From: Microbacterium ginsengisoli
Lineage (GTDB): Bacteria > Actinomycetota > Actinomycetes > Actinomycetales > Microbacteriaceae
Direction: 5' to 3'
Length of the DNA: 64,000 nt
Assembly: GCF_000956535.1 (NCBI RefSeq)
Contig: NZ_JYIY01000069.1
Coordinates: 20,157 to 84,156 of the forward strand
In this document: positions 6,895 to 8,977 of the stretch, in pieces
Numbering within the stretch: position 1 is the stretch's first letter
Layout: each line of letters starts with the position of its first letter
Notes under the pieces: model-generated
Seen by the model: the letters and a program-made list of their open reading frames with translations, nothing else
The model's database searches: none
Told to the model about the DNA's origin: nothing
Program-made: the position numbers and the translations under genes

Positions 6895-7066
6895 GTCTCT
6901 CCTTCGAAGTTGGGGGCGTGGTGGGCGTCCGCTGGCTGCGTTCCCCGTTAGGCGGCACCTGAGCCGCACCCACCACTTCGCGCTTAGCGACCGCGATACG
7001 TCGAGCCGATGAACATGGCGTCCCATGCCCTCTTCTCTGGAGGCAAACCCAGCGCTGATGACCCGG

Positions 7067-8977
7067 CTACCGGATGGGAGTCGGGAGCTTGATACGGCCG
7101 TCGGTCAGATCGACCTGCTCACGGCGGGAGTCGCGGGCGAACCCGGTCTCGGCGATGAAGTCGCGGATCTTCGCCTGCCCGGCCTGCACCTTCGTGCGCG
7201 CGTCCGCGCGGGTCTCCGGGGACACCGCGAACTCGAGCTGCCGCTTCGCTTTCCGCACCTCAAGTTCGAGGCGACGCTGCTTCTGCGACAGGTCGTAGTT
7301 CGCCTGCATCTCCTCGGCCCACACCTGCGGTTCCGGGAGGACCGTCACCCCCGGGTAGACGGGCAGGAGCGTGTGGCGGCAGTTATGTACTAAGATCGAG
7401 CTAGCGACGTAGGCGCCCGTCGACGTTTGGAGGTCGTAGGCATGCCCTTCGAAGTGAAGGAACTCGACGTTGACCAACTCGTCCGGCTCTACACCAGCGG
7501 CGAGACCGCTGAGAATCTCGCTCACCGATTCGGCGTCAGCGACACGACGATCCGTCGGCGTCTCCGCGACCGCGGCGTCAGCATCCGCCAGGGTCCGAGC
7601 TACCGCACCATGGACACAGAGGCTGTCAAGCAGCGCCGCGCGCGCACCCGTTCCCAGAAGGGCCTGCACATCGGCCCGCACGAAGTCGCTTTCGCTGCCC
7701 TGCTCGACGCCGCGGGACTCCACTATCGGCAGCAGCCGCCGATCGGCCACTACAACCTCGATTTCGCCCTGGATGAAGCGCCCATCGCCGTGGAGATCGT
7801 CAGCGGCGGCGGGAACTCGCGCCAGGCCTCCCAGCGCCGCGAGCGCATCGAGTTCGTCCTCGAACGTGGTCTGTGGGTCGTGGAGATTCACGTCCGGTAC
7901 GGGAACCAGTTCCGGACGCTCACTACTGGCAGTGCTGAATACCTGCATGCCCTCGCGGAGAGCCTTCGCGGGCAGCCATCCGGTCGCGGTGAGCACCGGA
8001 TGATCTGGGCTGACGGTGAGGTCATGACCCCGCGCAGTCGTCAGGTGTACTGACGGGCCGGAGTACCACGCCTTCACGCCGTTCTCAGCCTCACCGAGCA
8101 CCCGAACCGGGCCGTTTCCGAGGATCGCATTCGGGTGGAACAGGCCCGCCGCGGTCGCTTCCGCGATCGTCGCGTCGACGGGCAGAGCGGGGAACGGGAC
8201 CGGGGCGAACGTGAGCACGCGGCCCTGCCACGGGAAACACAGCGGGCACGGGTGACCCGTGTCGTCGACAGTGAAGTACTCCACGCCGAGCGCCTGCATC
8301 CGGGCCAGATGGGACGCGTTGTACGCCCGGGTCGCCGCGGTGCGCACCGCCATCTCCACGTACGCCGACAGCGACCAGTTCCGGCCCGACTTGTCGGTGA
8401 ACCCGGTGATGCCCTGCGACACGAACACCCGCCACGCCATCGCCTGCGCTTGCGCCGGCGTGACCTGGTTGTCGAGCACCTGCCGTATCGCGCCGTTCGG
8501 GGCGATCATCTTGTAGATGTCGTCGGGGAGGCGGGTGATGCGGAACCGCACATCCGCGAGCGACGATGTGATGTCGTCGCGGATCGCGCGCGCCGCCCGC
8601 TCACCATGCGACAGGGACAGGTCGAACGGTTCCCCGCCGGGGAGGGTCACGTCACGGCCTGGGGGGACACGGCCGCCCGCACCGCCGCCGGCACGAAGCG
8701 CGCGCTCGAGCACGAGCTCCGCGTCGCGGCGTCCCTCCGCCGACGCGGCCGTGACCATCGCCTGCAGCATCGGCGTGGACCGTGCCGTCAGGTACGTGAG
8801 CACCTGCCTCACCAGCAGGCGGGCACGGTTCAGGATCATCGCGTCCCGCTGAACCGACCACGGTGCACGCAGCACAGCGGTCAGGCCCGCGAGGAGTTCG
8901 TGCTCAGCGAGGACGTACAAGCCGATCAGGGCCGCCGCGATCTGCTGCGACGACGGCTCAGACGGCTGCTGCGCCAT
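7067..8977 (-). CDS. MuF-type minor head protein interrupted by an intein
   Basis: 636 aa precursor. The N-extein has helical portal-binding sequence and then the MuF core: AVRTAATRAYNASHLARMQALGVEYFTVDDTG, HPCPLCFPWQGRV, GLFHPN. The C-extein resumes with CRHTLLPVYPGV and ends in a charged helix. HPN and CRH together make the conserved HPNCRH motif of phage head morphogenesis proteins, so the insertion sits exactly in it. Removing the 249-residue insert leaves a 387-aa protein of normal size. It enters the head with the portal and is thought to help DNA injection. Its start overlaps the end of the portal gene. Confidence 0.9.
   Translation of the reverse strand: MAQQPSEPSSQQIAAALIGLYVLAEHELLAGLTAVLRAPWSVQRDAMILNRARLLVRQVLTYLTARSTPMLQAMVTAASAEGRRDAELVLERALRAGGGAGGRVPPGRDVTLPGGEPFDLSLSHGERAARAIRDDITSSLADVRFRITRLPDDIYKMIAPNGAIRQVLDNQVTPAQAQAMAWRVFVSQGITGFTDKSGRNWSLSAYVEMAVRTAATRAYNASHLARMQALGVEYFTVDDTGHPCPLCFPWQGRVLTFAPVPFPALPVDATIAEATAAGLFHPNAILGNGPVRVLGEAENGVKAWYSGPSVHLTTARGHDLTVSPDHPVLTATGWLPAKALREGMQVFSTASSERPELVPVPDVNLHDPQTTFEDELDALAALGGLARVPAAADDLHGDGRFIQGEIEVVVADRRLLPIVESRGVEQGSESDFVRADVQALLGTGARAALLDSLCVHGAVARTLADADAAVAETPTDRRVADAESVSEILSGLAAGVEPDELVNVEFLHFEGHAYDLQTSTGAYVASSILVHNCRHTLLPVYPGVTVLPEPQVWAEEMQANYDLSQKQRRLELEVRKAKRQLEFAVSPETRADARTKVQAGQAKIRDFIAETGFARDSRREQVDLTDGRIKLPTPIR
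7391..7433 (+). promoter_or_regulatory. Candidate -10 and ribosome site for the antisense endonuclease
   Basis: TAAGAT at 7391-7396 could serve as a -10 box and GGAGG at 7429-7433 is a strong ribosome site for ATG 7442. On the other strand these same bases encode the last intein residues (SSILVHN), using TTA, GTA and CAT codons that are rare in this high-GC phage. No good -35 is visible. Confidence 0.45.
7442..8053 (+). CDS. Vsr/EDxHD-like homing endonuclease gene, antisense inside the intein
   Basis: 203 aa on the opposite strand to the intein and wholly inside it. The start ATG 7442 has a perfect GGAGG (7429-7433) eight bases upstream. Residues 14-50 form a resolvase-type HTH (SGETAENLAHRFGVSDTTIRRRLRDRGVSIR). 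Residues 75-150 look like a PD-(D/E)XK/DUF559-Vsr fold: Glu81 in GPHEVAFAALLDAAGLHYRQ, Asp107 in HYNLDFAL, Glu118 in IAVEIVSGGGN, then RRERIEFVLERGLWVVEIHV. That combination resembles the EDxHD/I-Bth0305I homing endonuclease group. It would cut intein-free MuF alleles and so spread the intein. A weak -10 (TAAGAT, 7391-7396) lies upstream. Cutting specificity is inferred. Confidence 0.87.
   Translation: MPFEVKELDVDQLVRLYTSGETAENLAHRFGVSDTTIRRRLRDRGVSIRQGPSYRTMDTEAVKQRRARTRSQKGLHIGPHEVAFAALLDAAGLHYRQQPPIGHYNLDFALDEAPIAVEIVSGGGNSRQASQRRERIEFVLERGLWVVEIHVRYGNQFRTLTTGSAEYLHALAESLRGQPSGRGEHRMIWADGEVMTPRSRQVY

What the first reader, a model, noticed from the sequence alone, without database searches (positions are those of the whole stretch)
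7382..8128. Homing endonuclease gene written antisense inside an intein
The minus strand encodes a MuF-protein intein (SPDHPVLT block B, ILVHN|C end). The plus strand of the same 747 bases encodes a complete HTH plus Vsr/EDxHD-type endonuclease with its own GGAGG site. In known full-size inteins the endonuclease is a domain in the same frame, and mini-inteins lack one. Here splicing and homing share the DNA but on opposite strands, so both products can evolve as a unit and be copied together. The endonuclease C-terminus even overlaps the intein's N-terminal splicing block, so both strands are under protein-level constraint. I know of no named example of this arrangement.
Basis: partly seen in the sequence, partly recalled or inferred. 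Interest (0 to 1): 0.95.

Follow-up and report, generated by a model that had tools for sequence, protein, structure and literature searches.

The report
Endonuclease gene hidden antisense in intein
A phage capsid gene holds a likely self-splicing insert (an intein), and the opposite DNA strand of the same bases encodes a predicted DNA-cutting enzyme that would help it spread; the same two-strand arrangement recurs in phages of very different bacteria, with signs of natural selection on both strands.

The parts
7067..8977 (-). MuF-like minor head protein gene (636 aa) that hosts the intein
   Evidence: Pfam Phage_min_cap2 E=1.5e-34; PHROG minor head protein 4.1e-61
7382..8128 (-). Intein, 249 aa (Ala1 ... 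His-Asn, then Cys+1)
   Evidence: boundaries from intein-less relatives L088-L094, L096, L102; Intein_splicing E=1.6e-5, under the curated cut-off; model resembles RadA/RecA inteins
7442..8053 (+). Antisense nuclease gene, 203 aa, HTH + Vsr/EDxHD-type nuclease
7429..7434 (+). GGAGGT ribosome-binding site, written opposite intein block F (Y-D-L-Q)
   Evidence: across 25 loci SD-like matches exceed what the minus protein dictates, 0 of 1000 simulations; in the 11 GC-rich loci alone 59 of 1000
7469..7570 (+). Helix-turn-helix of the nuclease (residues 10-43)
   Evidence: HTH_7 match and predicted helices
7670..7972 (+). Nuclease domain (residues 77-177)
   Evidence: structure matches to Vsr, 3HRL and I-Bth0305I over residues 75-202, 76-177 and 78-177
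7682..7684 (+). E81, nearly invariant
7751..7762 (+). Y104-N105-x-D107, invariant core, plus-strand-owned
   Evidence: Y, N and D each 25 of 25 with free third positions
7784..7795 (.). Dual-coded codons: I/V-A-V-E118 of the nuclease (+) and F/L-H-G-D of the intein (-)
   Evidence: A116 is GCC in 23 of 25; minus G 24, D 23, H 20 and F 20 of 25
7988..8011 (-). Intein block B (SPDHPVLT), overlaps the nuclease C-terminus
   Evidence: minus H43 25 of 25; mostly minus-owned columns
7424..7444 (-). Intein block F (HAYDLQT); its other strand carries the SD and ATG of the + gene
7382..7396 (-). Intein block G (ILVHN) before Cys+1 of MuF (7379-7381)
7547..7735 (-). Intein linker (residues 132-194), low-confidence in the model, opposite the HTH end and the linker of the nuclease
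   Evidence: pLDDT under 50

Best explanation
The 747 bases at 7382-8128 encode on the minus strand a 249-residue intein, predicted to splice itself out of the phage MuF head protein, and on the plus strand, in the same codon register, a 203-residue predicted HTH plus Vsr/EDxHD-type nuclease that likely is its homing endonuclease. Likely mechanism: the minus-strand product splices (inferred), so the phage keeps a working MuF protein; the plus-strand gene would be made from an antisense promoter and ribosome site inside the intein, cut the intein-free MuF site (HPN|CRH), and repair would copy intein and endonuclease together (inferred). Shown here: the anatomy, its recurrence in phages of Actinomycetota and Pseudomonadota hosts, selection on both strands, empty sites in relatives, and, in several pairs, an intein segment more alike than its flanks. 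The bases divide by strand: HTH and the Y-N-x-D core are set mainly by the plus strand, block B and the ends mainly by the intein, and the four codons I/V-A-V-E / F-H-G-D by both.
For: Nested antisense in 78 of 80 entries, one register, plus three further phages found through the intein. Strand switch of substitution positions and NN/SN 0.22 in the core against 1.04 in flanks, pooled over 12 pairs, each also. 0 intein-stopping codons against 302 expected in 57 nucleases; 12 in the free-standing copy. Codon shuffles: 27 of 196 columns conserved on the minus strand and 61 of 196 on the plus strand beyond the other protein at p<0.001. Empty sites at the exact junction; 75 of 1117 phage records matching Snoke MuF cover at least 80% of it, while fFiEco03, 90% identical, lacks the intein. 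Identity over the intein 0.92-0.97 against 0.55-0.91 in the flanks, Snoke vs LP31. Nuclease and Hint distances correlate, Mantel 0.83, n=33. Fold: Vsr, I-Bth0305I; intein fold. With the anchor taken from the intein protein alone and 25 divergent loci, ATG in 20 of 25 (expected fraction 0.36), SD 4.40 against 3.60 and promoter score 8.78 against 7.22, each 0 of 1000 simulations.
Against: No activity is shown. The window itself has no consensus promoter on the plus strand (score 4 against 3.8 expected), and several members score no better than expected (L007, L075, L080, L038). The HD part of the EDxHD motif is not recognisable. Dual coding by itself slows change, so higher identity over the intein need not all be recent transfer. 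In the close group L038-L045 plus position 1 slightly exceeds position 3. Pairs and rows are partly related by descent. In window vs L027 the minus strand of the core shows no constraint (NN/NS 1.08), and the pooled minus value, 0.61, is weak. Pfam and NCBIfam intein models match the window below their curated cut-offs.
Confidence: 0.88

Rival explanations
1. The plus ORF is an accidental open frame opposite the intein, kept open by GC bias and codon use.
For: In this register 141 of 413 flank stretches of 110 codons are open by chance, mostly in GC-rich loci.
Against: Open over 231-299 codons in loci of 38-45% GC, where 8 of 134 flank stretches of 110 codons are open in loci under 57%; folds with pLDDT 89.7 and has a profile match to I-Bth0305I; plus purifying selection; free-standing relative.
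Confidence: 0.02
2. The nuclease gene is the only functional part and the intein frame is a decaying or non-splicing filler that merely stays open so that MuF is made.
For: Middle of the intein is predicted disordered; weak minus constraint in the core, 0.61 pooled and 1.08 for the window pair.
Against: Block B columns are among the most conserved on the minus strand (H43, G50 25 of 25); both ends of the intein are predicted with high confidence; block B side minus NN/NS 0.31 pooled.
Confidence: 0.06
3. The nuclease does not drive homing of the intein but serves another role (mismatch repair as Vsr does, or exclusion of competing phages), and hitchhikes in the intein.
For: Closest solved folds include the Vsr repair nuclease; no cleavage data.
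Against: Resident in the element it would mobilise; intein-free alleles in close relatives; best sequence match is a homing endonuclease; intein more alike than flanks in several pairs.
Confidence: 0.1
4. The intein spreads only by ordinary phage recombination, with an inactive, formerly homing nuclease.
For: REQ3-type copies lack the HTH; HD residues are not evident.
Against: Strong plus purifying selection in close pairs (Snoke/LP31 core NN/SN 0.04, REQ3/L035 0.06).
Confidence: 0.08

Closest known systems
Full-length mobile inteins with an in-frame homing endonuclease domain (e.g. PI-PfuI; description recalled, structure listed)
   Same: Intein in a conserved gene, with a homing-type nuclease carried inside it
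   Different: Here the nuclease is on the opposite strand with its own start and ribosome site; no homing-endonuclease family matched the intein strand of 29 members or of 6 scanned at a looser limit
Antisense homing endonuclease genes in nuclear group I introns (Didymium, I-DsqI; PMC9548176, abstract and passages seen)
   Same: Endonuclease gene on the strand opposite a self-splicing element; the paper reports expression from that strand and cleavage of the insertion site
   Different: That element splices as RNA and the gene sits in a peripheral paired segment; here both strands encode proteins and share codons
ShiLan-type hidden HNH insert in a phage methylase (PMC11855218, abstract, passages and sections 12 part 1 and 19 seen)
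   Same: Overlapping-frame homing nuclease inside a phage gene that stays open across it
   Different: Same strand, third frame, HNH type; the authors find no splicing domain and argue that it is not an intein
I-Bth0305I / EDxHD homing endonucleases, and split genes with free-standing EDxHD nucleases between intein halves (Dassa et al. 2009, recalled, not read)
   Same: Nuclease fold and best profile match
   Different: I-Bth0305I is listed as a mobile intron protein; in the split-intein case, as recalled, the gene lies between the halves, not opposite them
Rodin-Ohno sense/antisense gene hypothesis for aminoacyl-tRNA synthetases (PMC4082485, search listing only)
   Same: Two unrelated folds on opposite strands in codon register
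   Different: Hypothetical ancient ancestor there; present-day genes here

Membership tests
Intein | Hint fold / splicing domain | tested here: met
   Intein_splicing in 25 of 29 members at E<=0.01 (window 1.6e-5 but under the curated cut-off); Foldseek prob 1.00 to RadA and RecA inteins
Intein | Block B histidine, C-terminal Asn and Cys/Ser/Thr +1 | tested here: met
   SPDH and HN|C in the window; minus H43 in 25 of 25. The end-finding pattern itself demands N or D then C
Intein | Nucleophile at position 1 (Cys/Ser) or the known Ala1 variant | tested here: met
   Ala1 in the window from the empty-site alignment; Cys or Ala in the 73 placed loci, which the pattern demands; best PDB profile match 2JMZ is a KlbA intein precursor, an Ala1 intein (recalled)
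Intein | In-frame insertion with intein-free alleles | tested here: met
   (nine relatives of the window; Snoke against fFiEco03)
Intein | Protein splicing | not testable with these tools
   needs expression
Vsr/EDxHD-type homing endonuclease | Vsr-like nuclease fold | tested here: met
Vsr/EDxHD-type homing endonuclease | Full E-D-x-H-D motif | tested here: inconclusive
   E81, D107, E118, R135 conserved; no conserved H-D pair in the alignments
Vsr/EDxHD-type homing endonuclease | Separate DNA-binding domain | tested here: met
   HTH_7 in 20 of 31 members; absent in the REQ3 type
Vsr/EDxHD-type homing endonuclease | Cuts the element-free site | not testable with these tools
   needs a cleavage assay
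Canonical full-length intein | Endonuclease domain in frame with the splicing domain | tested here: not met
   no homing-endonuclease family on the intein strand; the nuclease is antisense
Group I intron with antisense endonuclease gene | RNA intron | tested here: not met
   no intron family in window 6900-8700; the one listed hit is a snoRNA model at 19.2 bits against a cut-off of 40; the insert is in frame with intein blocks
ShiLan-type out-of-frame insert | HNH nuclease on the sense strand, no splicing domain | tested here: not met
   opposite strand, Vsr fold, splicing domain present

The most novel reading that the evidence does not exclude
These are living sense/antisense genes: two unrelated folds, a protein-splicing domain and a homing nuclease, written codon against codon on opposite strands, with the nuclease's promoter, ribosome site and start codon engraved in the intein's splicing blocks and four codons (V-A-V-E / F-H-G-D) serving conserved motifs of both proteins, making a self-contained ambigrammatic selfish element spread across phages of at least two bacterial phyla.
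Probability: 0.7. Interest if true: 0.93.

Novelty: new variant of a known kind. Interest (0 to 1): 0.88.

Why it matters
It would add an intein architecture in which splicing and mobility are encoded on opposite strands rather than as fused domains, so that neither could easily be lost without damaging the other. It also gives many present-day examples of two folded proteins sharing one stretch of DNA in codon register, a natural test bed for overlapping-gene evolution and for the sense/antisense idea behind the Rodin-Ohno hypothesis. Practically, the phage records looked at here annotate one of the two proteins, mostly the MuF strand, so a nuclease family is hidden under head-protein or hypothetical-protein annotations.

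Tried and rejected

Rows dropped: one search kept 25 of 31 nucleases (under 65% identity) and 196 columns; could not place intein ends in 5 of 78 nested loci (L009, L025, L048, L050, L081); one search counted 57 distinct nucleases, 59; one search used 12 of the 26 pairs; one search looked at 9 of 19 fetched relatives. The start codons were chosen with credit for ATG, for an SD-like site and for a place opposite block F, so the SD and promoter tests (26 loci; 32 loci, some related) were biased. I therefore repeated them with an anchor taken from the intein protein alone and 25 loci under 65% identity, out of 66 with an anchor; 7 loci of the REQ3 type (L005, L024, L031-L035) had none. The result held overall, but the SD signal is weak in the 11 GC-rich loci (59 of 1000). 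The selection tests do not use the chosen start; searches use it only for the extent of the gene and for column M1.

Literature: searches (inteins; introns) showed no intein with an antisense endonuclease gene. I judged from the listed titles and abstract beginnings, which are only the top of longer lists; only PMC11855218, PMC3943268 and PMC9548176 were opened, in part. One search was about the Rodin-Ohno hypothesis.

Full report
The observation. The minus strand of 7067-8977 encodes a 636-aa MuF-like minor head protein. The insert is therefore residues 284-532, window 7382-8128, exactly the coordinates of the finding. It carries block B (SPDHPVLT), a block F-like HAYDLQT and ILVHN before Cys+1. 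Its predicted structure is confident at both ends and low-confidence at residues 71-81 and 132-194, and the best fold matches are RadA and RecA inteins.

Recurrence. tblastn with the nuclease alone finds 113 of 50,697 phage records; the listed ones lie under genes annotated as head morphogenesis, minor capsid, MuF-like, structural or hypothetical protein (some under the label NAD+--asparagine ADP-ribosyltransferase), or in unannotated records, from phages of Salmonella, Pseudomonas, Gordonia, Escherichia, Rhodococcus and others. I fetched 15 of these and added 64 loci from genome and viral contigs found with nuclease queries. Of these 79 plus the window, 78 have a minus frame fully open across the nuclease, always with coinciding codon boundaries, at 38-72% GC. 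L026 is the window's own sequence and some others are near-identical or cut by contig ends. The two exceptions are Acinetobacter phages where the nuclease stands free, on the opposite strand, just downstream of an intein-less MuF gene. Searching with a relative's intein instead found 125 records. I fetched four not seen among the listed nuclease matches: three have a complete nested nuclease and one is an unverified record with broken frames.

Selection on both strands. In this register plus position 3 faces minus position 1. In the flanks minus position 3 changes most in 25 of 26 pairs, the other pair having no change; over the nuclease plus position 3 exceeds plus position 1 in 19 of 26 pairs, 4 are tied (two of them without any change) and 3, all within the close group L038-L045, are slightly reversed. 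An overlap-aware count over 12 of these pairs gives plus NN/SN 0.22 in the core against 1.04 in flanks, and minus NN/NS 0.61 in the core, 0.31 on the block B side and 0.45 in flanks. For the window pair alone the core values are 0.42 plus and 1.08 minus. TTA, CTA and TCA in the nuclease would stop the intein: 0 were seen against 302 expected from the loci's own codon use in 57 distinct nucleases, while the free-standing copy has 12. Shuffling synonymous codons within each of 25 divergent nucleases, 27 of 196 columns are conserved on the minus strand beyond the plus protein at p<0.001, and 61 of 196 the other way. The map is orderly: HTH and Y-N-x-D are mainly plus-owned, block B mainly minus-owned, and at I/V115-E118 both are constrained, A116 being GCC in 23 of 25. 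That stretch reads F/L-H-G-D on the intein strand. Relatedness of rows inflates these figures to some degree.

Expression signals. My first tests used start codons chosen with credit for ATG and SD and were biased, so I repeated them with an anchor taken from the intein's block F alone, in 25 loci under 65% identity. The codon opposite the anchor is ATG in 20 of 25 (all 20 that have His on the intein strand), against an expected fraction of 0.36; SD-like matches average 4.40 against 3.60; promoter scores average 8.78 against 7.22; each is reached by 0 of 1000 simulations that keep the intein protein. Split by GC, the 14 low-GC loci give 1, 0 and 0 of 1000 for start, SD and promoter, the 11 GC-rich loci 0, 59 and 2. 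L073 and L079 have TTGACA-18-TATAAT with an extended -10; there the -35 box lies across the splice-junction codons (by eye). The window and several others (L007, L038, L075, L080) show no promoter above expectation.

Mobility. Closely related phages differ by the insert: of 1117 records matching Snoke MuF, 75 cover at least 80% of it, and fFiEco03, 90% identical, lacks the intein at the same junction. Identity is high across the intein and falls near its ends in several pairs. Nuclease and splicing-domain distances correlate (0.83), more than nuclease and extein (0.72); partial correlations 0.68 and 0.43, n=33. The splicing set includes block B, which overlaps the nuclease, so these are not fully independent. 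The intein of fEg-Eco06 (L009) sits at another Cys of MuF, so the family appears to have used more than one site.

What is known. Antisense endonuclease genes occur in nuclear group I introns, with expression and cleavage reported (PMC9548176, abstract and passages). An out-of-frame HNH insert in a phage methylase lies on the sense strand and is argued not to be an intein (PMC11855218, abstract, passages and sections 12 part 1 and 19). A review describes the EDxHD enzyme I-Bth0305I as a multi-domain protein on a very long target (PMC3943268, passages). The listings showed no intein with an antisense endonuclease gene; only the top of the longer lists was seen. [quoted passage not shown] I saw only its title, and it may describe part of this.

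Verdict. The arrangement and the dual constraint are well supported; splicing, cleavage and homing are inferred. I file it as a new variant of the mobile intein.

Noticed in passing
L014:455-1348 (+) and L015:2827-3720 (+): Acinetobacter phages carry a free-standing relative of the nuclease on the strand opposite MuF, its 3' end overlapping the 3' end of an intein-less MuF gene by 7 bases; it uses the codons that nested copies avoid. It may be an escaped copy.
   Followed up: partly
L009:1880-3817: In Escherichia phage fEg-Eco06 the intein with its antisense nuclease sits before a different Cys of MuF (CRARDG) than in Snoke (HPN|CRST).
   Followed up: partly
window 7784-7795 (-), intein residues 112-115: A conserved F/L-H-G-D motif in the intein, outside the blocks I know, is conserved beyond what the antisense nuclease dictates; its role in splicing is unknown.
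   Followed up: partly
L005, L024, L033-L035, L031, L032: REQ3-type copies have a different block F region; the REQ3 nuclease lacks the HTH and starts further inside the intein.
   Followed up: no
many loci: Many of these inteins end in Ser-Asn or another pair instead of His-Asn before Cys+1.
   Followed up: no
P0001, P0002 (Corynebacterium): Here the public annotation calls the nuclease strand, while in the annotated nested phage records fetched the MuF strand is called; automatic annotation hides one of the two genes.
   Followed up: no
window 7391-7396 (+): TAAGAT resembles a -10 box 45 bases before the nuclease start and has TANNNT counterparts in L022, L023, L027, L028; no statistical support for the window itself.
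   Followed up: partly
L111: UNVERIFIED record of Salmonella phage GE_vB_HIL has broken frames on both strands at this site.
   Followed up: no
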